DNA from: Acanthococcus lagerstroemiae
Taxonomy: Eukaryota; Arthropoda; Insecta; Hemiptera; Eriococcidae
Assembly: GCA_031841125.1 (NCBI GenBank)
Contig: JAJSSI010000018.1
Coordinates: 1-64,000 of the forward strand
Direction of reading: 5' to 3'
DNA length: 64,000 nucleotides
Part shown: positions 9,971 through 62,805 of the stretch, one piece after another
Layout of the letters: the number at the start of each line of letters is the position of its first letter
Numbering within the stretch: position 1 is the first letter of the stretch
The notes under the pieces: model-generated
What the model saw: the letters and a program-made list of their open reading frames with translations, nothing else
Database searches by the model: none
Told to the model about the DNA's origin: nothing
Made by a program: the position numbers and the translations under genes

Positions 9971-11467
9971 TTAAAACTTAATATAAAATTTCTTATCATT
10001 ATAATTTAAAATACTTTTACTATTTTTCCAATCAAGAATATCTTTAATATATTTCCAAAGATCGTTTTTATTCATATTAATATTCAAATCATTTAATAAT
10101 TCTTTCTTGTTTAATTTTTTATTATTATCAATATTTTCTAAGATTTTAAATAATTGATCTTTAACTAATTCTCTATTTTCTTCTTCTATATTGATTGTTT
10201 CACTTTGATCTCCGAAGGTATATGAAATAGAAGTAATATCCAAAGCTTTCATAATAATAGGATCTTTAGATAAACTATTTTCTAATTTATTCTTAATAAA
10301 ATCATATAAATATTCTAAACTTTTATCATAATTTTCAATAATAAAATTAACAATATCAATAAGATCATCAATATTGATTCCACAATAAAGTTCATTATTC
10401 TTTTTGTATTGAAATGATTTAAGTAAAGTTTTTATATGATGATCTAGATCTTTTGAATTATAACATTTTTTAACATAAACATAATAATAATCATCAGGAT
10501 GACCAGTTTGATAATTACTGATTCTTTTATGTAATCTTTCGGTTGATCCAATTTTATATATTTTATCTTTTTGGTAATTATCATTCGAAGATATATAAAT
10601 CCATTCTAGTTTATTAGATTTTATTGTGATGTTATTCATAAATTGATTGATTCTTTTTGCTTTTTTATTAGCTTTGATTAATTCTTGATCTTTGATTGTT
10701 AATTCTTGATCTTTGATTTTTAATTGATTTTGAAAAGATAAAGATAATTGTTTTTCTTTTAATAAATTTATTTTTTCTTGATTGATTTTAAACTCAGAAA
10801 TATATTTAGAATAATCATAAAAGATTTCTTCGAGTGAAATATAATATTCTCTAATTTCTTGAGCTACTTTTGTATTTAATCTCATAATCAAAGATTTAAA
10901 ATTTCTAACAGTTAATAAAATCCAAGTTTTCTGAACAAGATTATTAGGAGATAAATTTTTAATTTCATCTTGAATATATTGATATTCTAAAGATAAAGGA
11001 TTATTATGTTTTAATTTTTTAAAATCTATTTTATAATTGATTAAAGATTCTATTAAATTATGTTTAATATTTTTATTTTTTTCAGGGTGTGGCGCCACAC
11101 ACCCTGTAATTCCATAATGAATAAATTTCAAAATATCATTTGTAATTAATACATCTTTTTGTTCAAATAAAGGATACCAAATATCTTCGAACCAAGTACC
11201 TAGATTTATTTTATAATTTTTAATTTTCATGAAATCAAATATATTTAATTCTTTGCTATATAATTCAAGATGATTGATTAAATCAATATCCTCTTGTTCT
11301 TCCATGAAATTATTTTTTATCTCTGGAAGAGAATAATAAATAATATCTTTACTTTTAAAATAATCTTCATAGTTTTCATAATTTAATATTTTGAATATAT
11401 CTTTCATATTGTACTTATTATCTTTGATTTCTATTTTTTGATTTTGATATACGATAAAAGAATCCAT
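9971..11467 (-). CDS. MSV199-T5orf172 protein, paralogue 2 (type B centre)
   Basis: The 498-residue protein is nearly identical to paralogue 1 over its first 85 residues and from the coiled coil to the end, but its centre is a different MSV199 version (type B: GTWFEDIWYPLFEQKDVLIT, then ILLTVRNFKSLIMRLNTKVA). The T5orf172 signature WIYIS...YKIGSTERLHKRI is intact, as is the glutamate in NNELY. A GC-rich palindrome (11,083-11,106) is read in frame as part of GCVAPHPEK at about residues 121-128. The number of (I/L)KDQE coil repeats is two, fewer than in paralogue 1. The sharp change between conserved and unrelated segments indicates recombination. Confidence 0.85.
   Translation of the reverse strand: MDSFIVYQNQKIEIKDNKYNMKDIFKILNYENYEDYFKSKDIIYYSLPEIKNNFMEEQEDIDLINHLELYSKELNIFDFMKIKNYKINLGTWFEDIWYPLFEQKDVLITNDILKFIHYGITGCVAPHPEKNKNIKHNLIESLINYKIDFKKLKHNNPLSLEYQYIQDEIKNLSPNNLVQKTWILLTVRNFKSLIMRLNTKVAQEIREYYISLEEIFYDYSKYISEFKINQEKINLLKEKQLSLSFQNQLKIKDQELTIKDQELIKANKKAKRINQFMNNITIKSNKLEWIYISSNDNYQKDKIYKIGSTERLHKRISNYQTGHPDDYYYVYVKKCYNSKDLDHHIKTLLKSFQYKKNNELYCGINIDDLIDIVNFIIENYDKSLEYLYDFIKNKLENSLSKDPIIMKALDITSISYTFGDQSETINIEEENRELVKDQLFKILENIDNNKKLNKKELLNDLNINMNKNDLWKYIKDILDWKNSKSILNYNDKKFYIKF
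11083..11106. repeat. In-frame GC-rich palindrome in paralogue 2
   Basis: A 24-bp element begins CAGGG and ends CCCTG around the perfect 14-bp core GTGTGGCGCCACAC, with a two-base slip on one side. It is strikingly GC-rich inside an A+T-rich gene and does not break the frame. Confidence 0.9.
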
Positions 11468-11515
11468 TTTTATTTTTATTATATATTTATTATAATTTCA
11501 AATTTTAAAAATATT
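11468..11515 (-). promoter_or_regulatory. Conserved upstream box of MDSF-type genes
   Basis: The same TTTGAAATTATAATA box seen before the other MDSF starts lies about 25-45 bp upstream of the ATG at 11,467. Confidence 0.45.
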
Positions 11516-11539
11516 AATCATTGAATTTTGATTTTATTG

Positions 11540-11860
11540 TTTATAGATAAAAATATCATACTCATAAATTTTCTATAAATATCTTCTAATCAAAAATATC
11601 AACATATAATCAAATTAAAATATTATTATATTATTTTTATTCAACATAATATACGTGGATTTGATTTCTTAATATCTTCTTTAAGATTTATAAAATTATG
11701 ATCTTGATTCTTTATAATTTATTTGTTCAAAATCTATTTAAATATTATTTATAACCTCTGTATTTTTTTGATAAAATCGTGATTACTAAAAGTAGTTACG
11801 GTTTTATTATTAGAAATATTGATAAAATTATTCAAAAGGAGCCACAAACTATATATTTTA
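11540..11860 (-). pseudogene. Decayed MSV199 fragment
   Basis: This is a second copy of the fragment at 9590-9895, with stops and frameshifts. At 11,778-11,800 it keeps an imperfect inverted repeat with ten-base arms, CGTGATTACT and AGTAGTTACG, separated by AAA. Two of the ten pairs are T-G, so it could still fold. Its sequence looks like a decayed form of the palindrome inside the gene at 15,263-16,750. Confidence 0.65.
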
Positions 11861-12342
11861 TCATTTTTGAAAAAATAATATATAATTTAAAAACAATATT
11901 ATAGTATCTATTTTAATTTAATTTTAATACTTAATTTTAATACTTAATTTTAATACCTAATTATAAATTTTAAATTATAAGTAATTTTTATCATATATCT
12001 AATTTTATCGATTTTATAAAAATTAAAAAAATTATAATTAAGTAAAATTGATCATTACTCTGCTCGAACATTGCCAAATAAATATTTTAAGATAAAATTA
12101 ATGAAATAATTATTATTAAATTATAATAATTGGAGAGCGATAGACTTAGAATAATAAAAATAATTAATTTTAAGATTTGCTTTTGGATCTAGAAAAAATA
12201 AAAATGAAAAATTAATAAAAAAAATTAAATCTAATCATATTAAGATTATTATAGAATTTATCTTTCTTCTTTAAAGAACATTTTATAAATTAATTAATTA
12301 TCATTTTCAATATAATATATTTTATCAATTTAATCATTAAAT
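11861..12342. other. Intergenic region, no gene seen
   Basis: A+T-rich, with a short triplicated TTAATTTTAATAC motif near 11,920-11,960 and two less A+T-rich spots near 12,055-12,075 and 12,130-12,150. The 3' part should contain the promoter of the 94-residue gene. The palindrome TTCTTTAAAGAA is at about 12,268. Confidence 0.4.
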
Positions 12343-13285: not shown

Positions 13286-14653
13286 ATGAATATAATCAGA
13301 AATGATTGTGTGAAAGTACTTGATCAATTTTCTCATTCCACTGAATCTGAATTATTAATTTTATTTGGAACAAGAAGAATAGGAAAAACATATACAATAA
13401 AAGAATATTTTAAAAATCAAATTATTTCCATAACCGGTATTTATAATCTCAACACTTTAAAACAAATATCTAATTTTAGAAATATTTTAAATGAAAAATT
13501 TCCTGAAAATAATTTTTTAAATTGTAAATCATGGCAAGATATATTTTTTAATTTAAAAAATGTTAAAAAAGATTTTATATTATTCTTAGATGAAATTAAT
13601 TGGATTCAAAGAAAAAAATCTTCATTTCTTTCTTATCTTGGGCATTATTGGAATACATGTCATTTAGATCAAAAAATCAAATTAATAATATGCGGATCTG
13701 ATTCTCATTTTATTATTAATAATTTTATAATAACACAAAATCAGTTTAATTTTAGAGCATCATACATTATTCATATGAAACCTTTTACATTAAACGAAAC
13801 ATATAAATATTTTAATTTATTAAATTATCATTACAATATTGAACAAGTTTGTTTTATATATATGATTGTAGGTGGAATTCCTTTTTATTTAAAGAAATTT
13901 ATTAAATCGAATTCTATTAATGAAAATATAGAAAATATTATTTTTTCTAAAAATGGAATTTTATCTCAAGAATTTTATTATCTCATATCGAGTATATTTG
14001 AAAATCCTAATAGATACATTGATATATTAAATTCTATTGTTTTTTCAAAGAAAAATTATTTATCTTTTACAGAAATAAAAGATAAATTAAAAACAAAATC
14101 TAATCAAGTATTAGAACAAATTAAATATTTATTAAATTGTGAAATTTTATCTATCACTAAACCATATTTTAATAAAGAAAAAAAAAATTGTTACAGAATA
14201 AATCATGAGTTTATTAATTTTTATATTTATTGGAAAGATAAAAAATCATGGTATGATATAATTGATACTCCAAATTTTTATTCATGGAGAGGTTTAAGCT
14301 TTGAAAATATAATTTATAAAAATATTAAATCCTTAGAAAAAAAATTAAATATTAGAATATTAAATATTTTTTATCCTTTTATCTTAGAATCAAAAGATTA
14401 TAAAATACAAATTGATCTTTTATTAGAAACTAAAAGAGAAAATTACATAATAGAATGTAAATTTAATGATAATTGTTTTTATATAGATAAAGAATATAAT
14501 TCTAAATTAGTAAGAAAAATTAGTTTATTAGAAAAAACTTTGAGAAAAGAAATTATTGTTATTTTTATTTCAAATAAAAAAATAAAAGAAAATAATTATT
14601 CTTCTTTTTATAAAAATATTTTAATAGATGATTTGTTTGATAAACATAATTAA
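13286..14653 (+). CDS. AAA+ ATPase with C-terminal PD-(D/E)XK-like region
   Basis: The 455-residue protein has a Walker A GTRRIGKT at 28-35, a Walker B FILFLDE with D102-E103, and a sensor-like strand LIICGSDS near 133-140. The phrase MKPFTLNE and then VGGIPFYLKKFI follow, matching the bacterial and archaeal AAA ATPase family that carries a winged helix and a DUF234-like nuclease-fold tail. The tail shows IQIDLLLE and IIECKF, compatible with the D...ExK of PD-(D/E)XK. Such proteins are common in bacteria, so transfer from bacteria is likely. The start ATG sits in TAAATG. A partial second copy runs off the right edge of the window. Function in this genome is unknown. Confidence 0.85.
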   Translation: MNIIRNDCVKVLDQFSHSTESELLILFGTRRIGKTYTIKEYFKNQIISITGIYNLNTLKQISNFRNILNEKFPENNFLNCKSWQDIFFNLKNVKKDFILFLDEINWIQRKKSSFLSYLGHYWNTCHLDQKIKLIICGSDSHFIINNFIITQNQFNFRASYIIHMKPFTLNETYKYFNLLNYHYNIEQVCFIYMIVGGIPFYLKKFIKSNSINENIENIIFSKNGILSQEFYYLISSIFENPNRYIDILNSIVFSKKNYLSFTEIKDKLKTKSNQVLEQIKYLLNCEILSITKPYFNKEKKNCYRINHEFINFYIYWKDKKSWYDIIDTPNFYSWRGLSFENIIYKNIKSLEKKLNIRILNIFYPFILESKDYKIQIDLLLETKRENYIIECKFNDNCFYIDKEYNSKLVRKISLLEKTLRKEIIVIFISNKKIKENNYSSFYKNILIDDLFDKHN

Positions 14654-14759
14654 TTGAATTATTTTTTAAAAATTATTTTATGATTGATTGAGAAATTTCA
14701 GATAATATTTTTTTTATAATCTTTTTAATCAAAACTTTCTGAAAATAAAAAATGATAAT

Positions 14760-15110
14760 CTGTGATTTATTTATATTGGATCCTCTTATTTAAATAGAAA
14801 GATATTTTGATTACAAATGATATTTTGAATTTCATCCATTATGGAACAGGGCCTATGGCCATAGGCCCTGAAAAAAATAAAAAAAACAAAAGCAATCTAT
14901 TGATCATTTTACAAAACAATAACATTGAATACATGGAAATCAAATATAACAATCCATTAATTTTAAACATATATTCAATGAGATTAAAAATATATCTCCT
15001 AATAATCTTGTTCAGAAAACTTGAATTTTATATTTTATTAACTGTAATTTTAAATCTTTAATCATGAGACTGTATGTAAAAACGGCTCAAGAAATTATAA
15101 AATATTTGTT
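14760..15110 (+). pseudogene. Decayed type B MSV199 fragment with perfect palindrome
   Basis: The fragment encodes ITNDILNFIHYG, then a palindrome (read as GPMAIGPEK), then shifted frames that still show the type B pieces PLILNIYS, LVQKT-like and SLIMRL...AQEI. There is no N-terminal block or nuclease domain. The open frame starting at a TTG near 14,807 is not a gene. It lies just after the ATPase gene. Confidence 0.7.
14847..14870. repeat. Perfect 24-bp GC-rich palindrome
   Basis: The half site is CAGGGCCTATGG, followed without spacer by its reverse complement. It sits at the position in the MSV199 fragment where intact genes have their own, different, palindrome. Confidence 0.95.
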
Positions 15111-15262
15111 TTCAAAAATAAAGAAAAATAAAAAAATAATAAAATTCTATTCAAGCATATCTTTATGATTGAAAAATAAAAAATTTAAAAATTCTTTTTA
15201 TGATTAATCCTGTTGAAATAATTTCAGATTATTACAATTAATAAATTAATTATCTTTATTTT

Positions 15263-16750
15263 TTAAAATCTAATATAAAAGTTTTTATTATTATAATTTA
15301 AAACGGTCTTACTGTTTTTCCAATCAAGAATATCTTTAATATATTTCCAAAGATCGTTTTTATTCATATTAATATTTAAATCATTTAATAATTCTTTTTT
15401 TTCTATTTTTTTATTATTATCAATATTTTCTAAGATTTTAAATAATTGTTCTTTAACCAATGCTCTATTTTCTTCTTCTATATTAATTGTTTCAACTTGA
15501 TCATTTATAACATATGAAATTGAAGTAATATCTAAAGCTTTCATTATAATAGGATCTTTAGATAAACTATTTTCTAATTTAGTTTTAATAAAATCATATA
15601 AATATTCTAAACTTTTATCATAATTATCAATAATAAAATTAACAATATCAATAAGATCATCAATATTGATTCCACAATAAAGTTCATTATTCTTTTTGTA
15701 TTGAAATGATCTAAGCAAAGTTTTTATATGATGATCTAGATCTTTTGAATTATAACATTTTTTAACATAAATATAATAATAATCATCAGGATGACCGGTT
15801 TGATAATTACTAATTCTTTTATGTAATCTTTCGGTTGATCCAATTTTATATATTTTATCTTTTTGGTAATTATCATTCGAAGATATATAAATCCATTCTA
15901 GTTTATTAGATTTTATTGTGATGTTATTCATGAATTGATTAATTCTTTTTGCTTTTTTATTAGCTTTGATTAATTCTTGATCTCTAATTGATATTTTTTG
16001 ATCTCTGATTAATAATTCTTGATCTTTGATTGTTAATTTATTTTGTAAAGAGAAAGATAATTGAATTCCTTTTTGAATATTAAATTTTGAAATATAATCA
16101 AAATATAAAGATAAAATTTTTTCTATTTCAATATAATATAATCTAACATGTTTAGATTTAATCATTGCAACTTGTTTAAAATTATCTATTGTAAGCAAAA
16201 TATATTTCTTTGAATGAATTGTTCTTTTATCTGAATTTTTGATATCATTTAAAATATAATTATAGTTATTGCATCTTAAATCTTTATATTCGATTTGTTC
16301 AAAATCTATTTCATTTTCATTTAAAAACTTAATAAATAGCTTTTTTTCATATTTAAAAACGTGGTCACTAAAAGTGACCGCGTTTTTTTCATTATAAATA
16401 TTAATAAAATTAAGTAAATTAGGAGTGATTAGTATTTCTTTTTTGTTATATAATTGTAACCAAAGTTCTTTGAATATTTCATTATTATATATTGTATAAT
16501 TTTTAATTTTCATAAAATCAAATATATTTAATTCTTTGCTATACAATTCAAGATAATTGATTAATTCTATATCTTCTTGTTCTTCCATGAAATCATTTTT
16601 TATCTCAGAAAGAGAATAGTAAATAATATCTTTAGTTTTAAAATAATCTTCATAGTTTTCATAATTTAATATTTTAAAGATATCTTTCATATTGTACTTA
16701 TTATCTTTGATTTCTATTTTTTGATTTTGATACAAAATAAAAGAATCCAT
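15263..16750 (-). CDS. MSV199-T5orf172 protein, paralogue 3 (type A centre)
   Basis: The 495-residue protein has the MDSF N-terminal block, a type A MSV199 domain (EILITPNLLNFIN and LLTIDNFKQVAMIKSK), a coiled coil with two (I/L)(I/L)(I/S)RDQ-like repeats, an intact T5orf172 domain (WIYIS, YKIGST, KRI, NNELY) and the winged-helix-like end. A 31-bp palindrome (16,356-16,386) is read in frame as part of NAVTFSDHVF at about residues 122-132. The mirror gene at 61,318-62,805 encodes the identical protein. The upstream box TTTGAAATTATAATA is present. Its first 85 residues and last 230 are close to paralogues 1 and 2. Confidence 0.87.
   Translation of the reverse strand: MDSFILYQNQKIEIKDNKYNMKDIFKILNYENYEDYFKTKDIIYYSLSEIKNDFMEEQEDIELINYLELYSKELNIFDFMKIKNYTIYNNEIFKELWLQLYNKKEILITPNLLNFINIYNEKNAVTFSDHVFKYEKKLFIKFLNENEIDFEQIEYKDLRCNNYNYILNDIKNSDKRTIHSKKYILLTIDNFKQVAMIKSKHVRLYYIEIEKILSLYFDYISKFNIQKGIQLSFSLQNKLTIKDQELLIRDQKISIRDQELIKANKKAKRINQFMNNITIKSNKLEWIYISSNDNYQKDKIYKIGSTERLHKRISNYQTGHPDDYYYIYVKKCYNSKDLDHHIKTLLRSFQYKKNNELYCGINIDDLIDIVNFIIDNYDKSLEYLYDFIKTKLENSLSKDPIIMKALDITSISYVINDQVETINIEEENRALVKEQLFKILENIDNNKKIEKKELLNDLNINMNKNDLWKYIKDILDWKNSKTVLNYNNKNFYIRF
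16356..16386. repeat. In-frame palindrome in paralogue 3
   Basis: Two 13-base arms (AAAACGTGGTCAC and GTGACCGCGTTTT) flank TAAAA, with one mismatched pair. The frame is kept. Confidence 0.95.
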
Positions 16751-16800
16751 TTTTGTTTTATTATATATTTATTATAATTTCAAATTTTAAGAATATTAAT
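16751..16800 (-). promoter_or_regulatory. Conserved upstream box of MDSF-type genes
   Basis: TTTGAAATTATAATA lies upstream of the ATG at 16,750, as before the other MDSF-type genes, followed by ATATATAATAAAACAAAA up to the start. Confidence 0.45.
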
Positions 16801-16829
16801 CATTGAATTTTGATTTTATTGTTTATAGA

Positions 16830-17210
16830 TAAAAATACCATGCTCATAAATTTTCTACAAATATCTTCTAATCAAAAATATCAACATATAATCAAATCAA
16901 AATATTATTATATTATTTTTATTCAATATCAAGAGATTTTTAAATGTATTGTACGTAGATTTGATTTTTTATTTTTTTCTTTAATGATATTCATAAATTT
17001 ATGATCTTGGATTTTTATAATTTATTTATTCAAAATCTATTTAATTATCGTTTAAAAACTCAATAAAATGTTTTTTTTCATCTCTAAACACACGGACGGA
17101 AAATCCGTCCGTGTCATATTCATTAATAAAATCAAATATATCGTAAATAATATTTTTATCTATTACTTCTCTTTGATCATAAAATAAAAGTTTTTTATTT
17201 TTTTGACATT
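16830..17210 (-). pseudogene. Chimeric remnant: MSV199 fragment joined to LRR-gene start
   Basis: On the minus strand, 17,210 to about 17,138 is a frameshifted copy of the first 25 codons of the LRR-like gene (start at 21,641). It then changes abruptly into the MSV199 fragment IFDFINEYDT, with a palindrome at 17,090-17,114 and a decayed FE.INYK.PRS segment. The DNA upstream of this chimera equals the divergent promoter at 21,642-21,734. It is evidence for an old duplication followed by deletion. Confidence 0.65.
17090..17114. repeat. GC-rich palindrome in MSV199 remnant
   Basis: Perfect ten-base arms ACACGGACGG and CCGTCCGTGT flank the loop AAAAT. It is the closest relative of the palindrome in the adjacent gene at 17,652-17,676. 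Confidence 0.95.
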
Positions 17211-17302
17211 GTATTTTTATATTATTTGTATATAAAATTGATTTTTGATTTTAATTAAAAAATTGAAATAATATTATTTTATTATAAAAATAATTTATCA
17301 TA
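17211..17302. promoter_or_regulatory. Upstream region of MSV199 paralogue 4
   Basis: It contains AAAAATTGAAATAATATTA about 30-50 bp before the ATG at 17,303. The segment is almost the same as 21,642-21,734, where it separates two divergent genes. Confidence 0.5.
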
Positions 17303-18718
17303 ATGGATAATATATTTTTTAATAATCACGAAATCAAAATTCAAGATAATAAATATTCTATGAAAGATATTTGTGATTCTTTGAATTATGATTATCAAGA
17401 ATATTTTGAAACTGATGAAGATATTTATTATTCTTTAAATGATTTAATTGATAATTTCGATGATGAAGAAATAATTAAATTTATTAAACATATTCTATTA
17501 TTCAGTAAAGAATTAAATATTTTTGATTTTATAAAAGTTAAAAAAATTAATTTATCTGATAATAAAATATTTAATGAATTATGGAATCAACTTTATAATA
17601 AAATAGAGATACTAATAACACCTGATTTACTTAATTTTATTAATGAATATGACGTGGACGGAAAATCCGTCCGCGTGTTTAAAGATGAAAAAAAACATTT
17701 TATAGAATTTTTAAATCATAATGAAATAGAATTTGAACAAATAAATTATAAAGATTTAAGAATCAAAAATTATCAATATATTTTAAAAGATATCGATCAA
17801 TCAAATCCACATACAATACATTCTAAAAAATATCTTATTTTATCTATTGATAATTTCAAACAAGTTGCAATGATTAAATCTAAATATGTAAGATTGTTTT
17901 ATATTAATTTAGAAAAATTATTAATCGAATATTCTAAATATATTTCTGAATTTAAAAGTAATCAAGATAAAATAAATTTATTAAAAGAAAAACAATTATC
18001 TTTATCTTTTCAAAATCAATTAAAAATTAAAGATCAAGAAAATCAACAATTAAAATCTACGAATCTTGTTATTAAAAACTTTATCGATAATGTTAAATCT
18101 AAAAATAAAAATGGATATATTTATATCGCAACATGCAAACAATATGCTATAATTAATAATTTCAAGATCGGCAAAACTGATAATTTAATTTCAAGATTAT
18201 CTTCATTTAATTCTTCTCATACTTCGCAAGATTTATTCTATTATTGTTATTATGAAAAAGTTTATAATGTTAATAAAGTTGAAAATGTTATTCATGATAT
18301 ACTAGATGATTTCAGAGATAAAAACGATAAAGAAATTTTCATTTTACATTATAAATATTTAAAAGAATTAATTCAATTAGTTATCAAGAATATCAATGAA
18401 CCTTATGATTATATAAATAATTTAATCAAAAATAAATTAACTTCAATGTATGAACTTAAACCAATTATCCCAGAACCTTTGATAATAAATAATGAAAATA
18501 TTATCTTAAATGAACTTAAACAAGAAATCATAAAATTATTAGATAATTGTATTGATAAAAATAATCTTAATTTATCAAGAAAAGAATTATTATCAAGATT
18601 AAATTTAGAAAATAAAAATAAAGTTCAATTATGGAATTATGTTAAAAATATCTTAAAATGGAAAGATTCTAAAACTCCAATTGATTACAAAAATAATAAA
18701 CTTTATATAACTTATTAA
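17303..18718 (+). CDS. MSV199-T5orf172 protein, paralogue 4 (MDNIFF subgroup)
   Basis: The 471-residue protein begins MDNIFFNNHE and is organised like paralogue 1: N-terminal block 1-80, type A MSV199 about 85-210 (EILITPDLLNFINEY, then LILSIDNFKQVAMIKSK), coiled coil 215-255, T5orf172 domain about 270-362 with GYIYIA, FKIGKT at 287-292, R298 and E344, and a winged-helix-like end from 405. A 25-bp palindrome (17,652-17,676) lies in frame and encodes DVDGKSVRV at about 117-125. The mirror gene at 59,350-60,765 encodes the same protein. It converges on the secreted-protein gene, whose stop is 63 bp away. Confidence 0.87.
   Translation: MDNIFFNNHEIKIQDNKYSMKDICDSLNYDYQEYFETDEDIYYSLNDLIDNFDDEEIIKFIKHILLFSKELNIFDFIKVKKINLSDNKIFNELWNQLYNKIEILITPDLLNFINEYDVDGKSVRVFKDEKKHFIEFLNHNEIEFEQINYKDLRIKNYQYILKDIDQSNPHTIHSKKYLILSIDNFKQVAMIKSKYVRLFYINLEKLLIEYSKYISEFKSNQDKINLLKEKQLSLSFQNQLKIKDQENQQLKSTNLVIKNFIDNVKSKNKNGYIYIATCKQYAIINNFKIGKTDNLISRLSSFNSSHTSQDLFYYCYYEKVYNVNKVENVIHDILDDFRDKNDKEIFILHYKYLKELIQLVIKNINEPYDYINNLIKNKLTSMYELKPIIPEPLIINNENIILNELKQEIIKLLDNCIDKNNLNLSRKELLSRLNLENKNKVQLWNYVKNILKWKDSKTPIDYKNNKLYITY
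17652..17676. repeat. In-frame palindrome in paralogue 4
   Basis: Arms ACGTGGACGG and CCGTCCGCGT flank AAAAT, with one T-G pair. The mirror is at 60,392-60,416. Confidence 0.95.
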
Positions 18719-21734: not shown

Positions 21735-22735
21735 ATGGATAATATATTTTTCAACAATCACGAAATCAAAATTCAAGATAATAAATATTCTATGAAAGAT
21801 ATTTGTGATTCTTTGAATTATGATTATCAAGAATATTTTGAAACTGATGAAGATATTTATTATTCTTTAAATGATTTAATTGATAATTTCGATGATCAAG
21901 AAATAATTAAATTTATTAAATATATTCTATTATTCAGTAAAGAATTAAATATTTTTGATTTTATAAAAGTTAAAAAAATTAATTTATCTGATAATAAAAT
22001 ATTTAATGAATTATGGAATCAACTTTATAATAAAATAGAGATACTGATCACTCCTAATTTACTTGATTTTATTAATAAATATGATAAATCTGACAATCGC
22101 GGAATTTCCGCGTATGTCAATAATGATCAAAAACATCATTTTATTGAATTTTTAAAAGCAAATGAAATAGAATTTGAACAAATAAATTATAAAGATCCAA
22201 GATCAGAATTTTATGAATATATTAAAGAAGATATTAAAAAATCAAATCCACATACAATACATTTAAAAAAATATCTTATTTTATCTATTGATAATTTCAA
22301 ACAAGTTGCAATGATTAAATCTAAATATGTAAGATTGTTTTATATTAATTTAGAAAAATTATTAATCGAATATTCTAAATATATTTCTGAATTTAAAATT
22401 ATTCAAGAAAAACAATTATCTTTATTTTTTCAAAATCAATTAAAAATTAAAGATAATCAACTTTTATTAAAAGATCAAGAAAATCAACAATTAAAATCTA
22501 AACGATTTGTATTATTAAAAATTTTATCGATAATGATGAATCTAAAAATAAAAATGGATATATTTACTTTTCAAATTGTAAACAATATGCGAAAATTAAT
22601 AATTTCAAGATTGAAAAAACCAATGATTTGATTATCTTCATTTAATTCTTCTCATATTTCGCAAGATTTATTCTATTATTGTTTATTATGAAAAAGTTTA
22701 TGGATATTAATAAAGTTGAAAATGTTATTCATGAT
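21735..22735 (+). pseudogene. MSV199-T5orf172 gene, frameshifted (paralogue 5)
   Basis: The first 298 codons are open. The N-terminal block, type A MSV199 domain and coil closely follow paralogue 4, but near 22,500 (codon about 257) the frame shifts. The T5orf172 sequence that should follow (KNKNGYIYF...FKI.KT) is present in another frame and ends broken near 22,735. The 298-residue product would lack the nuclease domain. A palindrome lies in frame at 22,092-22,118. The mirror copy has the same frameshift plus several amino-acid changes. A truncated MSV199-only protein may still be made. Confidence 0.8.
22092..22118. repeat. In-frame palindrome in paralogue 5
   Basis: The core CGCGGAATTTCCGCG (22,098-22,112) is flanked by GACA on the left and TGTC on the right. 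It encodes part of DNRGISAYV at about residues 120-128. Confidence 0.92.
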
Positions 22736-23134: not shown

Positions 23135-24027
23135 ACAAATTCATTAGTTTATTAGATTTTATTGTGATAGTATTCATGAAACGTTTAATTCTTTTTGATT
23201 TTTTATTTGTTTTTTAATTCTTGATTTTTATTTGATATCTTTTGATCTTTGATTGTATCTCTTGATCTTTGATATTAATTTATTTTGAAGAGATAAGAGA
23301 TATTTGTTACTCTAATAAATTTATTTTTTCTTGAATAGTTTTAAATTCAGAAATATATTTAATAAAATCATAAATAATTTCTTTAAGAGTAATATAATAA
23401 TCTCTAATTTCTTGAGCAGGTTTTGTATTAAGTCTCATAATCAAAGATTTAAAATTACGTACTGATAATAAAATCCATTTCTTTTGAATAAGATTGTTCG
23501 GTTTTAAATTTTTTATTTCTTCATCAATATGTTTATAATTTAGTTTTTTCAAATCAAGATAATTTATTTCTATAAAATTAATATTATTATTATTTAAAAT
23601 TTTTTTAAAATCTTTTTTTATTTCATAATAATTCAGGGTTGGATATCTATCCACCCCTGATTTGTTAATACCATAATGAATAAATTTCAAAATATCATTT
23701 GTAATTAATACATCTTTTTGTTCAAATAAAGGATACCAAATATCTTTAAACCACAATCCTAATTTTATTTGATAATTATTAATTTTTATAAAATCAAAAA
23801 TATTTAATTCTTTGCTATACAATTCAAGATGATTGATTAAATCAATATCCTCTTGTTCTTCCATGAAATCATTTTTTATCTCAGAAAGAGAATAATAAAT
23901 GATATCTTTACTTTTAAAATAATCTTCATAGTTTTCATAATTTAATATTTTAAAGATATCTTTCATATTGTACTTATTATCTTTTGATTTCTATTTTTTG
24001 ATTTTGATATACGATAAAAGAATCCAT
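23135..24027 (-). pseudogene. MSV199-T5orf172 gene remnant (type B centre)
   Basis: The ATG at 24,027 starts MDSFIVYQNQ, but a one-base insertion near 23,983 breaks the frame before KYNMKDIF. From 23,966 the frame is open for 219 codons through the N-terminal block and a type B MSV199 domain, then stops after the coil begins. Broken coil and NKKSKRIKRFMN-like sequence continue to about 23,135. The nuclease domain is absent. A palindrome with 13-base arms lies at 23,633-23,660. The mirror copy has, in addition, a 32-bp deletion. Confidence 0.8.
23633..23660. repeat. Palindrome in MSV199 remnant
   Basis: Arms TCAGGGTTGGATA and TATCCACCCCTGA flank two bases, with one mismatched pair. It encodes part of SGVDRYPTL. 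Confidence 0.92.
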
Positions 24028-24084: not shown

Positions 24085-24165
24085 TTTGATTTTATTTTAT
24101 TGTTTATAGATATAAAAAAACACCCGGAGAAAATCTCCGGATGATTTGAAATCCTAACAATCATA
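24085..24165. repeat. Single copy of the 85-bp hairpin unit
   Basis: This is the same sequence as one unit of the 12-copy array at 8512-9585, with CCGGAG-AAAAT-CTCCGG at 24,124-24,140. It lies upstream of an MDSF-type gene start, as the array does. Confidence 0.92.
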
Positions 24166-36060: not shown

Positions 36061-37551
36061 TTATATATTTGCTTTAATTCCAACCCAATAAGTTGAAGTA
36101 TTAACTTTCTTTTCAGTTTTGAATCCTCTTGATTTTAAAGCACTCTGAAAATGTAAGGATGGCAATCCCATATTTTTATAATATTTATCTATAAATACTT
36201 CATAATAAGAACGAAGTAAACCAAATCTAACTGTACTATTAATATCTGATATGATACAATTAGAAATAAATTTTTCTAGTACGTTTATCTTAGTTAAATT
36301 ATTTCTTTGATTATTTCTTTGATTGTTACTTTGATTACTTTGATTACTTTGATTACTTTGATTACCAATAAAATTAAAATTATCAATTCTGTTATCAAAT
36401 CTGTTATTATTATCAAATCTGTTATTACTATCAATATTCCTATTAAAATTATTATTAATTAAATCAATTCTATTATTATTAAAATTATGATTAGCATTTA
36501 TAATCATATTAGGAATTTCAATTTCTTTTAAAGAATCAGGATCCGAATTAATTAAATTATCATTGAAAGATAAAGCATTATTGTTAATCATTTCAATTTC
36601 TTGATTAGAATTAGAAATAACTAGTTCAACTATATTTTTTAAATCATTGAACTTAATATTGTACATTTCTTTTTTATCATTCGGTTTAAAATATGAAAGT
36701 AAAATTTTTATTCTTTCTTCTACAATCTTAAAATTATTACAATAAGATAAATAAACAAAAAAATATTTATCTTCATCCGGTCTGCCGGTATTGTATGTTG
36801 ATAATCTTTGTTTACAGTATCCTAATTTAGAAATACAGTTTGATCCTCCTACTTTATAATAATCTTGTTTGATATATTCTTCAGTAGAAGCAATATAAAT
36901 AATTTGATCAAAGTTTAAATTAATAAATTTTTTATCAAATACTTGTTTGAGCTTCAAAGAATTATTTTCTTTTAATTTTAATTTATTTTCAAATTCTATC
37001 TTTAATTGATTGTGTTTATATTCTGAAATATATTTAGAGTAATCAAATAATATTTCTTCTAAAGTGATGTAATATTCTCTGATATTTTTAGCAACGTCTG
37101 TATTTAATCTCATTATTAATTTTTTAAAATCTTTTACCGAAAGAATATACCAAGTTATTTTATTCAAATTGTTCGGAGAAATGTTTTCAATATCTTTATT
37201 AATTAAATTTAAATATTCTTGTTTATTTTTAACAATTTCTTCATAATTAATAATTTTATAACTGATTTGATTGTTATTTAAAATCTTTTTAAAATTTTTC
37301 TTTATTTCTGTAATATTTAGGGAATTATCCCCAACCTCGTCAAATCCATATTTTATAAATAGTAAAATTTCATTAGTGATTAAAATATCTTTTTGTTCAA
37401 ATAAAGAATACCAAATATATTTAAACCATCTTCCTAATGATATTTCATAATTATTATTGTTTATAAAAGTTATAATATCTTGATATTTTTCTTGAATTTC
37501 GCTTTGAATTTCACTTTGATTGCTTGTACTTGGAATTATTGTATTTTCCAT
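36061..37551 (-). CDS. MSV199-T5orf172 protein, MENTII subgroup, left allele (type B centre)
   Basis: The 496-residue protein starts MENTIIPSTS in a TAAATG context. Residues 40-172 are a type B MSV199 domain (RWFKYIWYSLFEQKDILIT, ILSVKDFKKLIMRLNTDVA). Residues 175-210 form a coil and 214-310 a T5orf172 domain (IIYIAS, YKVGGS, QRLSTYNTGRP with R249, KKEMY with E295). Residues 350-405 are Asn/Arg/Gln-rich with NQS and RFDNN repeats. The end, 408-496, is a winged-helix-like domain (LPSLHFQSALKSRGF...STYWVGI) reminiscent of D5 wings. The mirror gene at 40,477-41,991 keeps nearly the same ends but has a different centre. A weak GGGA-ATTA-TCCC inverted repeat is at 37,320-37,331. Confidence 0.85.
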   Translation of the reverse strand: MENTIIPSTSNQSEIQSEIQEKYQDIITFINNNNYEISLGRWFKYIWYSLFEQKDILITNEILLFIKYGFDEVGDNSLNITEIKKNFKKILNNNQISYKIINYEEIVKNKQEYLNLINKDIENISPNNLNKITWYILSVKDFKKLIMRLNTDVAKNIREYYITLEEILFDYSKYISEYKHNQLKIEFENKLKLKENNSLKLKQVFDKKFINLNFDQIIYIASTEEYIKQDYYKVGGSNCISKLGYCKQRLSTYNTGRPDEDKYFFVYLSYCNNFKIVEERIKILLSYFKPNDKKEMYNIKFNDLKNIVELVISNSNQEIEMINNNALSFNDNLINSDPDSLKEIEIPNMIINANHNFNNNRIDLINNNFNRNIDSNNRFDNNNRFDNRIDNFNFIGNQSNQSNQSNQSNNQRNNQRNNLTKINVLEKFISNCIISDINSTVRFGLLRSYYEVFIDKYYKNMGLPSLHFQSALKSRGFKTEKKVNTSTYWVGIKANI

Positions 37552-38219: not shown

Positions 38220-38475
38220 CGAATACGATCTAATCATTGTAACCGTATACCAATTTATTTTATTCAAATTGTTCGGAGAAAGATTTTCAATATCTTTGTT
38301 AATTAAATAAATATTCTTTTTATTTTTAACAATTTCTTCATAATTAATAATTTATAATTGATTAGATTATTATTTAAAATCTTTTTAAAATCTTTCTTTA
38401 TTTTTAAATATTCAGTTAGGTGCTCTTGGCACCCGCTAATATATTTTTTAAAAGAATTTTAATTATCACAAACTA
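38220..38475 (-). pseudogene. Silent MSV199 cassette b (left)
   Basis: A fragment with frameshifts encodes YEEIVKNK, LINKDIENLSPNNLNKI and YTVTMIR, matching the type B centre of the gene at 36,061-37,551 and not that of its mirror allele. A palindrome (GGTGC-TCTTG-GCACC at 38,419-38,433) is at its N-terminal end. Confidence 0.7.
38419..38433. repeat. Palindrome in silent cassette b
   Basis: Five-base GC-rich arms with a five-base loop, with TTA and TAA further out. The mirror is at 39,592-39,606. Confidence 0.8.
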
Positions 38476-54025: not shown

Positions 54026-54080
54026 TTAATAATTAATATTCTTAAAATTTGAAATTATACTATAATATAATAAAACAAAA

Positions 54081-54940
54081 ATGGATTCTTTTATCGTATA
54101 TCAAAATCAAAAAATAGAAATCAAAAGATAATAAGTACAATATGAAAGATATCTTTAAAATATTAAATTATGAAAACTATGAAGATTATTTTAAAAGTAA
54201 AGATATCATTTATTATTCTCTTTCTGAGATAAAAAATGATTTCATGGAAGAACAAGAGGATATTGATTTAATCAATCATCTTGAATTGTATAGCAAAGAA
54301 TTAAATATTTTTGATTTTATAAAAATTAATAATTATCAAATAAAATTAGGATTGTGGTTTAAAGATATTTGGTATCCTTTATTTGAACAAAAAGATGTAT
54401 TAATTACAAATGATATTTTGAAATTTATTCATTATGGTATTAACAAATCAGGGGTGGATAGGTATCCAACCCTGAATTATTATGAAATAAAAAAAGATTT
54501 TAAAAAAATTTTAAATAATAATAATATTAATTTTATAGAAATAAATTATCTTGATCTGAAAAAACTAAATTATAAACATATTGATGAAGAAATAAAAAAT
54601 TTAAAACCGAACAATCTTATTCAAAAGAAATGGATTTTATTATCAGTACGTAATTTTAAATCTTTGATTATGAGATTATTATATTACTCTTAAAGAAATT
54701 ATTTATGATTTTATTAAATATATTTCTGAATTTAAAACTATTCAAGAAAAAATAAATTTATTAGAGTAACAAATATCTCTTATCTCTTCAAAATAAATTA
54801 ATATCAAAGATCAAGAGATACAATCAAAGATCAAAAGATATCAAATAAAAATCAAGAATTAATTAAAGCAAATAAAAAATCAAAAAGAATTAACTAATTT
54901 ATGAATACTATCACAATAAAATCTAATAAACTAATGAATT
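54081..54940 (+). pseudogene. MSV199-T5orf172 gene remnant, type B (right)
   Basis: Mirror of 23,135-24,027, with the same insertion after KIEIK. Near 54,673 a 32-bp deletion between short GAGA-type direct repeats removes the LNTKPAQEIR region and shifts the frame, so the open part ends at 183 codons. The palindrome at 54,448-54,475 differs from the left one only in its loop. Confidence 0.8.
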
Positions 54941-54947
54941 TGTATAT

Positions 54948-56342: not shown

Positions 56343-56435
56343 TATGATAGATTATTTTTATAATAAAATAATATTATTTCAATTTTTTAATTAAAATCAA
56401 AAATCAATTTTATATACAAATAATATAAAAATACA

Positions 56436-57374: not shown

Positions 57375-57384
57375 TTTTAACAAA

Positions 57385-59286: not shown

Positions 59287-59349
59287 TTTTTTAATTTTAA
59301 TTCTCAATTAAAATATATTTTTACAATTTTAAATAATATAAAATTAATT

Positions 59350-60765
59350 TTAATAAGTTATATAAAGTTTATTATTTTTGTAATCAATTGGAGTTTTAGA
59401 ATCTTTCCATTTTAAGATATTTTTAACATAATTCCATAATTGAACTTTATTTTTATTTTCTAAATTTAATCTTGATAATAATTCTTTTCTTGATAAATTA
59501 AGATTATTTTTATCAATACAATTATCTAATAATTTTATGATTTCTTGTTTAAGTTCATTTAAGATAATATTTTCATTATTTATTATCAAAGGTTCTGGGA
59601 TAATTGGTTTAAGTTCATACATTGAAGTTAATTTATTTTTGATTAAATTATTTATATAATCATAAGGTTCATTGATATTCTTGATAACTAATTGAATTAA
59701 TTCTTTTAAATATTTATAATGTAAAATGAAAATTTCTTTATCGTTTTTATCTCTGAAATCATCTAGTATATCATGAATAACATTTTCAACTTTATTAACA
59801 TTATAAACTTTTTCATAATAACAATAATAGAATAAATCTTGCGAAGTATGAGAAGAATTAAATGAAGATAATCTTGAAATTAAATTATCAGTTTTGCCGA
59901 TCTTGAAATTATTAATTATAGCATATTGTTTGCATGTTGCGATATAAATATATCCATTTTTATTTTTAGATTTAACATTATCGATAAAGTTTTTAATAAC
60001 AAGATTCGTAGATTTTAATTGTTGATTTTCTTGATCTTTAATTTTTAATTGATTTTGAAAAGATAAAGATAATTGTTTTTCTTTTAATAAATTTATTTTA
60101 TCTTGATTACTTTTAAATTCAGAAATATATTTAGAATATTCGATTAATAATTTTTCTAAATTAATATAAAACAATCTTACATATTTAGATTTAATCATTG
60201 CAACTTGTTTGAAATTATCAATAGATAAAATAAGATATTTTTTAGAATGTATTGTATGTGGATTTGATTGATCGATATCTTTTAAAATATATTGATAATT
60301 TTTGATTCTTAAATCTTTATAATTTATTTGTTCAAATTCTATTTCATTATGATTTAAAAATTCTATAAAATGTTTTTTTTCATCTTTAAACACGCGGACG
60401 GATTTTCCGTCCACGTCATATTCATTAATAAAATTAAGTAAATCAGGTGTTATTAGTATCTCTATTTTATTATAAAGTTGATTCCATAATTCATTAAATA
60501 TTTTATTATCAGATAAATTAATTTTTTTAACTTTTATAAAATCAAAAATATTTAATTCTTTACTGAATAATAGAATATGTTTAATAAATTTAATTATTTC
60601 TTCATCATCGAAATTATCAATTAAATCATTTAAAGAATAATAAATATCTTCATCAGTTTCAAAATATTCTTGATAATCATAATTCAAAGAATCACAAATA
60701 TCTTTCATAGAATATTTATTATCTTGAATTTTGATTTCGTGATTATTAAAAAATATATTATCCAT
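59350..60765 (-). CDS. MSV199-T5orf172 protein, paralogue 4 (right copy)
   Basis: The protein is identical to the 471-residue gene at 17,303-18,718. The in-frame palindrome is at 60,392-60,416. Confidence 0.87.
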   Translation of the reverse strand: MDNIFFNNHEIKIQDNKYSMKDICDSLNYDYQEYFETDEDIYYSLNDLIDNFDDEEIIKFIKHILLFSKELNIFDFIKVKKINLSDNKIFNELWNQLYNKIEILITPDLLNFINEYDVDGKSVRVFKDEKKHFIEFLNHNEIEFEQINYKDLRIKNYQYILKDIDQSNPHTIHSKKYLILSIDNFKQVAMIKSKYVRLFYINLEKLLIEYSKYISEFKSNQDKINLLKEKQLSLSFQNQLKIKDQENQQLKSTNLVIKNFIDNVKSKNKNGYIYIATCKQYAIINNFKIGKTDNLISRLSSFNSSHTSQDLFYYCYYEKVYNVNKVENVIHDILDDFRDKNDKEIFILHYKYLKELIQLVIKNINEPYDYINNLIKNKLTSMYELKPIIPEPLIINNENIILNELKQEIIKLLDNCIDKNNLNLSRKELLSRLNLENKNKVQLWNYVKNILKWKDSKTPIDYKNNKLYITY

Positions 60766-60857
60766 TATGATAAATTATTTTTATAATAAAATAATATTAT
60801 TTCAATTTTTTAATTAAAATCAAAAATCAATTTTATATACAAATAATATAAAAATAC

Positions 60858-61240
60858 AATGTCAAAAAAATAAAAAACTTTTATTTTATGATCAAAGAGA
60901 AGTAATAGATAAAAATATTATTTACGATATATTTGATTTTATTAATGAATATGACACGGACGGATTTTCCGTCCGTGTGTTTAGAGATGAAAAAAAACAT
61001 TTTATTGAGTTTTTAAACGATAATTAAATAGATTTTGAATAAATAAATTATAAAAATCCAAGATCATAAATTTATGAATATCATTAAAGAAAAAAATAAA
61101 AAATCAAATCTACGTACAATACATTTAAAAATCTCTTGATATTGAATAAAAATAATATAATAATATTTTGATTTGATTATATGTTGATATTTTTGATTAG
61201 AAGATATTTGTAGAAAATTTATGAGCATGGTATTTTTATC
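60858..61240 (+). pseudogene. Chimeric LRR-start and MSV199 remnant (right)
   Basis: Mirror of 16,830-17,210, with the perfect ten-base-arm palindrome at 60,954-60,978. A minus-strand frame at 61,064-61,258 is a shadow. Confidence 0.65.
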
Positions 61241-61317
61241 TATAAACAATAAAATCAAAATTCAATGATTAATATTCTTAAAATTTGAAATTATAATAAA
61301 TATATAATAAAACAAAA

Positions 61318-62805
61318 ATGGATTCTTTTATTTTGTATCAAAATCAAAAAATAGAAATCAAAGATAATAAGTACAATATGAAAGATATCTTTAAAATATT
61401 AAATTATGAAAACTATGAAGATTATTTTAAAACTAAAGATATTATTTACTATTCTCTTTCTGAGATAAAAAATGATTTCATGGAAGAACAAGAAGATATA
61501 GAATTAATCAATTATCTTGAATTGTATAGCAAAGAATTAAATATATTTGATTTTATGAAAATTAAAAATTATACAATATATAATAATGAAATATTCAAAG
61601 AACTTTGGTTACAATTATATAACAAAAAAGAAATACTAATCACTCCTAATTTACTTAATTTTATTAATATTTATAATGAAAAAAACGCGGTCACTTTTAG
61701 TGACCACGTTTTTAAATATGAAAAAAAGCTATTTATTAAGTTTTTAAATGAAAATGAAATAGATTTTGAACAAATCGAATATAAAGATTTAAGATGCAAT
61801 AACTATAATTATATTTTAAATGATATCAAAAATTCAGATAAAAGAACAATTCATTCAAAGAAATATATTTTGCTTACAATAGATAATTTTAAACAAGTTG
61901 CAATGATTAAATCTAAACATGTTAGATTATATTATATTGAAATAGAAAAAATTTTATCTTTATATTTTGATTATATTTCAAAATTTAATATTCAAAAAGG
62001 AATTCAATTATCTTTCTCTTTACAAAATAAATTAACAATCAAAGATCAAGAATTATTAATCAGAGATCAAAAAATATCAATTAGAGATCAAGAATTAATC
62101 AAAGCTAATAAAAAAGCAAAAAGAATTAATCAATTCATGAATAACATCACAATAAAATCTAATAAACTAGAATGGATTTATATATCTTCGAATGATAATT
62201 ACCAAAAAGATAAAATATATAAAATTGGATCAACCGAAAGATTACATAAAAGAATTAGTAATTATCAAACCGGTCATCCTGATGATTATTATTATATTTA
62301 TGTTAAAAAATGTTATAATTCAAAAGATCTAGATCATCATATAAAAACTTTGCTTAGATCATTTCAATACAAAAAGAATAATGAACTTTATTGTGGAATC
62401 AATATTGATGATCTTATTGATATTGTTAATTTTATTATTGATAATTATGATAAAAGTTTAGAATATTTATATGATTTTATTAAAACTAAATTAGAAAATA
62501 GTTTATCTAAAGATCCTATTATAATGAAAGCTTTAGATATTACTTCAATTTCATATGTTATAAATGATCAAGTTGAAACAATTAATATAGAAGAAGAAAA
62601 TAGAGCATTGGTTAAAGAACAATTATTTAAAATCTTAGAAAATATTGATAATAATAAAAAAATAGAAAAAAAAGAATTATTAAATGATTTAAATATTAAT
62701 ATGAATAAAAACGATCTTTGGAAATATATTAAAGATATTCTTGATTGGAAAAACAGTAAGACCGTTTTAAATTATAATAATAAAAACTTTTATATTAGAT
62801 TTTAA
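61318..62805 (+). CDS. MSV199-T5orf172 protein, paralogue 3 (right copy)
   Basis: The protein is identical to the 495-residue gene at 15,263-16,750. The 31-bp palindrome is at 61,682-61,712, and the TTTGAAATTATAATA box precedes the start. Confidence 0.87.
   Translation: MDSFILYQNQKIEIKDNKYNMKDIFKILNYENYEDYFKTKDIIYYSLSEIKNDFMEEQEDIELINYLELYSKELNIFDFMKIKNYTIYNNEIFKELWLQLYNKKEILITPNLLNFINIYNEKNAVTFSDHVFKYEKKLFIKFLNENEIDFEQIEYKDLRCNNYNYILNDIKNSDKRTIHSKKYILLTIDNFKQVAMIKSKHVRLYYIEIEKILSLYFDYISKFNIQKGIQLSFSLQNKLTIKDQELLIRDQKISIRDQELIKANKKAKRINQFMNNITIKSNKLEWIYISSNDNYQKDKIYKIGSTERLHKRISNYQTGHPDDYYYIYVKKCYNSKDLDHHIKTLLRSFQYKKNNELYCGINIDDLIDIVNFIIDNYDKSLEYLYDFIKTKLENSLSKDPIIMKALDITSISYVINDQVETINIEEENRALVKEQLFKILENIDNNKKIEKKELLNDLNINMNKNDLWKYIKDILDWKNSKTVLNYNNKNFYIRF

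What the first reader, a model, noticed from the sequence alone, without database searches (positions are those of the whole stretch)
11083..61712. Position-fixed, sequence-variable palindromes inside MSV199 genes
At codons about 117-130, just after the LL(N/D)FIN helix, members carry an in-frame palindrome, mostly GC-rich: 11,083-11,106; 16,356-16,386; 17,652-17,676; 22,092-22,118; 23,633-23,660; and in remnants at 14,847-14,870, 17,090-17,114, 11,778-11,800 and 38,419-38,433. Each is different, yet the architecture recurs (10-13 bp arms, often AAAAT or similar in the loop). They keep the frame and stand out from the surrounding A+T-rich DNA. Rickettsial palindromic elements are a known precedent for in-frame palindromes, but here the site is fixed and the sequence varies. 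They could be self-recognition sites for the encoded DNA-binding protein, recombination points for the domain exchange, or RNA hairpins.
Basis: partly seen in the sequence, partly recalled or inferred. Interest (0 to 1): 0.9.

Follow-up and report, generated by a model that had tools for sequence, protein, structure and literature searches.

The report
Hairpin-encoding loop in poxvirus MSV199 genes
In insect-poxvirus-like DNA, one family of genes for DNA-binding, nuclease-type proteins often carries a short, usually G+C-rich mirror-image (hairpin) DNA sequence at one floppy spot of the protein; the letters change from copy to copy but the two halves keep matching, which suggests the DNA shape itself matters, possibly as the nuclease family's own target.

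Summary
Confirmed and extended. All nine reported palindromes exist; 38,419 is weak. Every strong G+C hairpin found (27 of 27 scoring >=16; 0-1 in five shuffles) lies in an MSV199 gene, an MSV199 remnant, or an element upstream of two MSV199 genes. They exceed what the protein needs: redrawn synonymous codons never reach the stem in four of seven genes (0 of 5000), rarely in two (25, 31), often in one (815). In the nine-codon 'FIN' class 10 of 12 pairs show two-sided changes. AlphaFold gives the encoded stretch the lowest confidence. In 12 of 21 relatives' loops the peptide is unusually palindrome-codable, mostly at the same place; their DNA could not be read. Not universal: of nine distinct genes five have it, one is weak, three lack it. 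Exchange junctions recur 20-30 nt 5' of the site.

Best reading: a DNA-level dyad in the variable loop of MSV199-T5orf172 (GIY-YIG) proteins, probably a recognition or breakage site for the family's own nucleases, its symmetry partly repaired by template switching. DNA-level constraint is shown; function is inferred (0.4). Main rival: a functionless palindrome kept by template switching in a tolerant loop.

The parts
9971..11467 (-). MSV199 + T5orf172 (GIY-YIG) gene, 498 aa, FIHYG class
   Evidence: Pfam MSV199 1.9e-38, T5orf172 5.5e-13
11083..11106 (-). In-frame palindrome, 11-bp arms if a 2-nt (TG) bulge is allowed; 9-bp arms without
   Evidence: 25 of 5000 synonymous redraws reach it
15263..16750 (-). 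MSV199 + T5orf172 gene, 495 aa, FIN class
16355..16387 (-). In-frame palindrome, 15-bp arms with one mismatch, 3-nt loop
   Evidence: 0 of 5000 redraws
17303..18718 (+). MSV199 + T5orf172 gene, 471 aa, FIN class
   Evidence: AlphaFold model
17652..17676 (+). In-frame palindrome ACGTGGACGGAAAATCCGTCCGCGT, one mismatch; encodes residues 117-125
   Evidence: 0 of 5000 redraws; residues 117-125 are the only segment of 3 or more with pLDDT <50
21735..22631 (+). MSV199 gene, 298 aa ORF; nuclease part continues in another frame
   Evidence: tblastn frame change about 22,520-22,735
22092..22118 (+). In-frame palindrome, 13-bp arms with two mismatches, 1-nt loop
   Evidence: core 22,098-22,112; 0 of 5000 redraws
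23307..23966 (-). MSV199-only ORF, 219 aa, FIHYG class, no nuclease domain
   Evidence: model
23633..23660 (-). In-frame palindrome, 13-bp arms with one mismatch, 2-nt loop
   Evidence: 0 of 5000 redraws
6940..8427 (-). MSV199 + T5orf172 gene whose loop is at most a degenerate palindrome
   Evidence: 815 of 5000 redraws reach it
36061..37551 (-). MSV199 gene with a weak palindrome; differs from its mirror 40477-41991 by a replaced tract, codons about 63-165, starting at the LL.FI helix
   Evidence: (31 of 5000)
14847..14870 (+). Perfect 12-bp-arm palindrome in a broken MSV199 remnant (14,776-15,114)
17090..17114 (-). Perfect palindrome (11-bp arms, 3-nt loop) in an MSV199 remnant; loop reads ATTTT in sense where gene 17303 has AAAAT; junction with another gene's start at 17,136-17,142
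11778..11800 (-). Palindrome in remnant, 9 of 12 pairs in the 27-nt frame
9804..9830 (-). A further decayed cassette in a remnant, 8 of 12 pairs, G+C 0.22
8515..9581 (.). 85-bp tandem array with 12 copies of an extragenic palindrome, nearest copy about 145 bp upstream of gene 6940
24121..24143 (.). Single copy of the same extragenic palindrome, about 155 bp upstream of the 23307 ORF
38419..38433 (-). Weak palindrome in a remnant; mirror at 39,592-39,606
54448..54475 (+). Mirror copy of 23,633 palindrome; differs only in the loop
55959..55985 (-). Mirror copy of 22,092 palindrome; one change at an already unpaired position
60392..60416 (-). Mirror copy of 17,652 palindrome, identical
60954..60978 (+). 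Mirror copy of the 17,090 remnant palindrome, identical
61681..61713 (+). Mirror copy of 16,355 palindrome, identical
63198..63221 (-). Mirror copy of the 14,847 remnant palindrome, identical

Best explanation
A coding palindrome sits in a disordered loop of the MSV199 DNA-binding domain of a family of entomopoxvirus-type MSV199-T5orf172 (GIY-YIG) proteins. SHOWN: it is a DNA-level feature. The codons used are those that pair, not those the A+T-rich genome prefers; arms change in step; it sits at nearly one place; all strong G+C hairpins of the window belong to this family's genes, remnants or upstream regions; an exchange tract and several remnants start next to it. INFERRED: the dyad is the recognition or breakage site of the family's own nucleases. 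The MSV199 half binds the dyad, the GIY-YIG half nicks or cuts there in a paralogue or in another genome copy, and repair from a paralogue copies in a different centre. This would make the mosaic genes, the remnants that start beside the palindrome, and the fast-changing loop and following helix. Symmetry is kept by selection on the dyad, helped by hairpin template switching, which evens out the arms and can invert the loop.
For: DNA-level constraint: synonymous-codon null, two-sided changes, predicted hairpin energies of -10.6 to -13.2 kcal/mol for seven different sequences. Between the two arms of the large repeat 7 of 7 palindromes keep every formed pair: 5 identical, 1 loop change, 1 change at an already unpaired site. 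Family specificity: 27 of 27 strong hairpins, while genes plus remnants cover 35% of the window; the extragenic element counts by position and looks only. Variable region: 6940/15263 codons 118-133 pN 0.43, pS 0.45; 134-160 pN 0.24, pS 0.29; outside pN 0.01-0.08, pS 0.12-0.23. Exchange beside it: mirror genes 36061/40477 differ by one tract from codon about 63 (the LL.FI helix) to about 165, with flanks mostly 11-15 of 15 nt identical on the left and 14-15 of 15 on the right, indels aside; the 17,090 remnant joins other DNA 22-28 nt 5' of its palindrome with 7 nt of overlap; the 11,778 and 9,804 remnants start 28-30 nt 5'. Precedent: Odn, a T5orf172 chimeric nuclease, needs semi-palindromic ~30-bp iterons to cut (PMC8263062, passages); phage T5orf172 homing nucleases swap DNA-binding domains (PMC10448857, passages).
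Against: No binding or cleavage is shown. A nuclease whose own gene holds its target would need to spare it. Gene 6940 has the nuclease domain but at most a degenerate palindrome; 23307 has a palindrome and no nuclease domain. Perfect palindromes in two broken copies (14,847; 17,090) need no protein. The junctions are few, and the three remnants at 17,090, 11,778 and 9,804 are homologous downstream (about 83-85%), so their left edges may go back to one event. In 17303/21735 and 9971/23307 pS rises too (0.75 and 0.76 in the cassette, with pN 0.38 in both), so the divergence is not only in the protein; relaxed constraint or template-switch mutation could give the same picture (PMC8604942 makes that point, abstract). 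One of the five covariation measures, further pair types, was reached by 75 of 500 shuffles.
Confidence: 0.4

Rival explanations
1. Selfish or accidental palindrome without function: an old G+C-rich palindrome in a tolerant, disordered loop, kept symmetrical only by hairpin template switching during replication, as proposed for nematomorph mitochondrial coding palindromes; nearby exchange edges would then be ordinary palindrome fragility.
For: Low-confidence loop. Inverted loop between gene 17303 (AAAAT) and the 17,090 remnant (ATTTT), the spacer-inversion signature of template switching (PMC8604942 and PMC8794818, abstracts). Perfect palindromes in broken copies. A relative lacks the loop cleanly (P0017 second domain against P0020).
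Against: Does not explain why only one gene family is affected, why G+C pairs persist at 17.5% genome G+C, or why the more decayed remnants lose pairing (9 and 8 of 12). The inversion is one case and could also be three substitutions.
Confidence: 0.33
2. Operator inside the gene: the MSV199 protein binds the dyad to control its own transcription, without cutting.
For: A sister palindrome lies about 145-155 bp upstream of two MSV199 ORFs, and remnant palindromes lie about 310-340 bp upstream of two others (9971, 15263; by the coordinates).
Against: No shared operator sequence between gene and upstream palindromes; distances differ; upstream copies may only be debris of duplication. The nuclease domain has no role in this reading.
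Confidence: 0.13
3. mRNA hairpin acting on transcript ends, translation or stability.
For: Stable hairpins of similar energy (computed with DNA parameters only).
Against: Mismatches are not biased to G-U on the mRNA strand (read); one family only.
Confidence: 0.1
4. Chance or protein-only effect: the loop peptides happen to be codable as palindromes.
For: Several of the peptides are palindrome-prone, and 9971 and 36061 are reached by a few synonymous redraws (25 and 31 of 5000).
Against: 0 of 5000 for four genes; 16 hairpins against 0-1 in each of 20 shuffles.
Confidence: 0.02

Closest known systems
Coding palindromes in mitochondrial genes of Nematomorpha (PMC6649704; abstract, discussion and passages seen)
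   Same: Inverted repeats inside translated genes, arms kept matched, template switching proposed
   Different: There up to 284 bp, scattered over genes, in conserved protein regions; here about 25 bp, one gene family, nearly one site, in a variable low-confidence loop
Rickettsia palindromic elements (recalled, and as described in the passages of PMC6649704)
   Same: In-frame palindromes tolerated inside proteins
   Different: RPEs are transposable elements that lose repeat identity with time (PMC6649704); that they are a sequence family in many genes is recalled. Here no common sequence, near-fixed site, compensated arms
Odn, the origin-directed T5orf172 nuclease of phage ICP1 (PMC8263062; passages seen)
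   Same: T5orf172 nuclease fused to a DNA-binding domain; its target is a set of ~30-bp semi-palindromic repeats
   Different: Odn's target lies in a rival's replication origin; here the dyad lies inside the nuclease family's own genes; binding untested
Phage T5orf172 homing endonucleases (PMC10448857; passages seen)
   Same: Modular nuclease genes with exchanged DNA-binding domains and recombination between paralogues
   Different: Mostly Zn-finger domains there, MSV199 here; the word 'palindrom' does not occur in that paper's text
GC clusters and byp elements of yeast mitochondria (palindromic bypassed elements as mentioned in PMC6649704; the names recalled)
   Same: Palindromic elements inside genes
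   Different: Those of Magnusiomyces are skipped in translation; here the reading frame runs on through and relatives' predicted proteins include the loop

Membership tests
MSV199-T5orf172 (MTG / N1R-p28-like) entomopoxvirus proteins | Pfam MSV199 and T5orf172 domains in one protein above the curated cut-off | tested here: met
   Genes 6940, 9971, 15263, 17303 (4 of the 9 MSV199 genes scanned); 21735, 23307, 33506, 36061, 40477 show MSV199 only
Rickettsial palindromic elements | One recognisable sequence family inserted in many unrelated genes (recalled) | tested here: not met
   Different letters in each copy; none of the 27 strong hairpins lies in another gene family of this window
Rickettsial palindromic elements | In-frame palindrome in an open reading frame | tested here: met
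   Open frames run through five palindromes; translation itself not tested
Nematomorph-type coding palindromes | Arms stay matched beyond what the protein requires | tested here: met
Nematomorph-type coding palindromes | Scattered over genes, in conserved protein regions | tested here: not met
   One site of one family; loop is the least certain part of both models
GIY-YIG homing endonuclease | GIY-YIG fold with catalytic Arg and Glu | tested here: inconclusive
GIY-YIG homing endonuclease | Cuts a target allele and is copied into it | not testable with these tools
   Mosaic genes, a replaced tract and remnants fit but are not proof
Odn-like chimeric nuclease | Recognises a semi-palindromic site through its fused DNA-binding domain | not testable with these tools
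   Architecture alike only
byp elements | Ribosome skips the element | not tested
   No expression data

The most novel reading that the evidence does not exclude
A self-addressed specificity cassette: the DNA-recognition domain's gene carries, inside its own hypervariable recognition loop, the symmetric DNA site that the protein recognises, so that swapping or mutating the cassette changes protein specificity and target together and keeps rival paralogues from cutting the new version.
Probability: 0.18. Interest if true: 0.93.

Novelty: new variant of a known kind. Interest (0 to 1): 0.75.

Why it matters
Coding sequence that must at once spell a protein and stay a hairpin is rare; here it recurs at nearly one site of one viral gene family, and in several viruses if the codable loops of the relatives are real palindromes. 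It offers a compact system to ask whether compensated changes come from selection or from template switching, and whether a nuclease family carries its own target inside the gene for its DNA-binding part. It also suggests a role for the MSV199 domain, whose name also appears among iridovirus and giant-virus proteins with a similar predicted structure.
Full report
WHAT WAS CHECKED. The window is 64 kb of 17.5% G+C. The protein of gene 17303 has its nearest named relatives in entomopoxviruses (P0001-P0004, Amsacta, Adoxophyes and Choristoneura viruses, 44-49% identity over 99-100% of the query), so the source is most likely an entomopoxvirus; this is an inference, since the genome itself could not be searched. 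A large inverted repeat pairs 14,067-31,281 with 64,000-46,846 at 98.15% identity, so many features occur twice.

THE PALINDROMES ARE REAL. All nine reported stretches read as described. A scan that weights G-C pairs 3 and A-T pairs 1 finds 16 hairpins scoring 18 or more; 20 dinucleotide shuffles give one in all. At 16 or more there are 27 (0-1 in five shuffles): 9 in MSV199 genes, 4 in MSV199 remnants and 14 copies of one extragenic palindrome. At this score none lies in the primase-like (DUF5906), BRO-N or AAA genes or in the two large genes without Pfam hit (18782, 20694); at 14 or more three further ones appear, one in the AAA gene and two TTCGAA palindromes. Without mirror copies and array repeats the strong ones are 8 kinds of site: 5 in genes, 2 in remnants, 1 extragenic element. 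The extragenic palindrome forms a 12-copy, 85-bp array whose nearest copy is about 145 bp upstream of MSV199 gene 6940, and stands once about 155 bp upstream of the 23307 ORF. Its loop (ATTTT in the sense of the genes) and the letters after it (GTGTTT) resemble the FIN-class cassette, so I take it for a further remnant of the loop; that is a judgement by eye.

THEY ARE NOT A BY-PRODUCT OF THE PROTEIN. I redrew each cassette 5000 times with synonymous codons at the frequencies of 6411 codons from 15 genes of the window (G+C at third positions 0.11). The observed stem was never reached for 15263, 17303, 21735 and 23307, 25 times for 9971, 31 times for 36061 and 815 times for 6940. Genes 33506 and 40477, which show no palindrome, were not put through this test. 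Third-position G+C in the cassettes of the five palindromic genes is 0.31-0.54.

NEARLY FIXED PLACE, VARIABLE LETTERS, MATCHED ARMS. In the FIN class the cassette is nine codons with its centre on the middle base of the fifth (read). Seven such cassettes (four genes, two remnants, one mirror copy) give 81% paired cells against 59% (sd 3.3) when partners are shuffled among sequences (0 of 500 shuffles as high), 10 of 12 pairs with two-sided changes (shuffles 5.3), and 27-41% paired when the partner is slid by 1-3 columns; the fifth measure, further pair types, is not exceptional (75 of 500 shuffles reach it). Relatedness and the choice of centre favour the structure, so this is support, not a probability. 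Between the arms of the large repeat 7 palindromes were compared: five identical, one change in a loop, one at a pair already unpaired. Seven hairpins of different sequence, folded as DNA with short flanks, have energies between -10.6 and -13.2 kcal/mol.

NOT IN ALL MEMBERS, AND LOST IN OLDER COPIES. Of nine distinct MSV199 genes five have a strong palindrome, 36061 a weak one, 6940 a degenerate one, 33506 and 40477 none. Remnants at 14,847 and 17,090 are perfect; those at 11,778 and 9,804 keep 9 and 8 of 12 pairs and have drifted to 33% and 22% G+C; the remnant at 29,741 has lost the stretch. So symmetry outlives the reading frame for a while and then decays.

RELATIVES. Two protein searches gave 23 relatives. 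Their DNA was in no collection I could reach. I therefore asked whether some choice of codons would make each loop a palindrome. Against shuffles of the same 18 residues, 12 of 21 distinct loops have p<0.05 and 9 do not; Fisher's combination gives 4e-12, overstated because the loops are related. Scanning whole proteins, the best codable centre of the loop lies 7.0-7.3 residues after 'FI' in 17 of 22 domains, and in 17 of 22 at most three of the 866-3229 other centres of the protein do as well; the loop is the best of the whole protein in 7 of 22. The peptides differ by class (QGGKHFPPC, QGCKYLHPC, PEGGLPPPE, SGSGIPDPS, NAVANSDHV; the last one not significant), so this is not one conserved motif. 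The second domain of P0017 lacks the loop (FIYD-LEKLYQ) where P0020 has it (FIYDFQGDKNLTPYNLEKLYQ). P0006 and P0021 show no signal.

WHERE IT SITS IN THE PROTEIN. The AlphaFold model of 17303 (mean pLDDT 80.8, pTM 0.45) has one segment of three or more residues under 50: residues 117-125, the codons of the palindrome, between helices 107-114 and 129-139. The model of 23307 (81.0, 0.63) has its only such segment at 104-107, inside its palindrome. Low confidence is read here as disorder. The codons after it also change fast: between 6940 and 15263 pN is 0.43 in codons 118-133 and 0.24 in 134-160, about equal to pS (0.45, 0.29), against pN 0.01-0.08 and pS 0.12-0.23 elsewhere. In 17303/21735 and 9971/23307 pN is 0.38 in the cassette and 0.20 and 0.30 after it, but pS rises too (0.75 and 0.76, then 0.24 and 0.48). 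In the three close pairs nucleotide identity falls at the palindrome and recovers over roughly 60-200 nt on its 3' side. This is what a diverging specificity region would look like, but relaxed constraint or clustered mutation would do so too.

SIGNS OF EXCHANGE, BREAKAGE AND TEMPLATE SWITCHING. The clearest exchange is between the mirror genes 36061 and 40477: in windows of 15 nt they are mostly 11-15 of 15 identical up to codon 62 (an indel near codons 16-22 aside), drop to 3-13 of 15 from codon 63, the LL.FI helix, to about codon 165, and are nearly identical again after that, two indels aside. The left edge thus lies just before the palindrome loop and the right edge near the end of the MSV199 domain. 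The 17,090 remnant joins DNA homologous to the start of gene 20694 (17,300-17,136, 94%) to MSV199 sequence (from 17,142, 82%) with a 7-nt overlap, 22-28 nt 5' of its palindrome. The remnants at 11,778 and 9,804, tandem relatives, start at 11,830 and 9,858, 28-30 nt before theirs. All three remnants are homologous downstream (about 83-85%), so one ancestral break may stand behind them. Upstream of 6940 and 23307 homology to the other promoters begins a few nt from a palindrome edge. Not all edges lie here: 6940 and 9971 part company at about codon 81. The loop of the 17,090 palindrome is the reverse complement of that of 17,652 (ATTTT against AAAAT in sense). Spacer inversion with arm homogenisation is the reported signature of template switching between inverted repeats in yeast genes (PMC8604942, abstract), and template switching can keep hairpin stems matched (PMC8794818, abstract and opening). 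One case is not proof.

NOVELTY. Coding palindromes are known in Rickettsia and in nematomorph mitochondria (PMC6649704). What is new is the combination: one gene family of a large DNA virus, nearly one site, different letters, matched arms, a low-confidence loop of a DNA-binding domain fused to a nuclease. Nine literature searches listed nothing of the kind for entomopoxviruses among the rows shown, in an open-access library only.

Noticed in passing
14067-31281 and 46846-64000: Large inverted repeat, 98.15% identical, with a further self-inverse core 37,363-40,689 at 94.5%; the arms differ, so it is not simply one sequence assembled twice.
   Followed up: partly
36061-37551 and 40477-41991: Mirror genes at matching places of the inverted repeat, alike at both ends but with different MSV199 centres (codons about 63-165): a clean domain replacement.
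   Followed up: yes
1328-1809; 2576-3030; 3651-4900; 6335-6881; 26503-27492; 30292-33462; 44661-47846; 50622-51612: Many 56-66-bp tandem arrays whose unit carries a TTCGAA palindrome (CTTCGAAG 115 times, TTCGAA 192 times in the window); they recall the homologous-repeat regions of baculoviruses (recalled).
   Followed up: no
17136-17300: DNA 94% identical to the start region of gene 20694 (leucine-rich by eye, no Pfam hit) joined to an MSV199 remnant beside a palindrome.
   Followed up: partly
24448-26217; 28792-29388: DUF5906 reading frames, the first below the curated cut-off; reading frames of matching length stand in the second repeat arm.
   Followed up: no
13286-14653: AAA_14 ATPase reading frame of 455 aa beside the MSV199 cluster.
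   Followed up: no
33506-34909; 36061-37551; 40477-41991: MSV199 genes without a recognised T5orf172 hit also lack a strong palindrome; 33506 has no arginine at the place where the others have one, by eye. Suggestive link between nuclease and palindrome, but 6940 and 23307 go against it.
   Followed up: partly
1855-2394; 4924-5565; 5660-6208; 550-1218: BRO-N and T5orf172 reading frames outside the MSV199 cluster.
   Followed up: no
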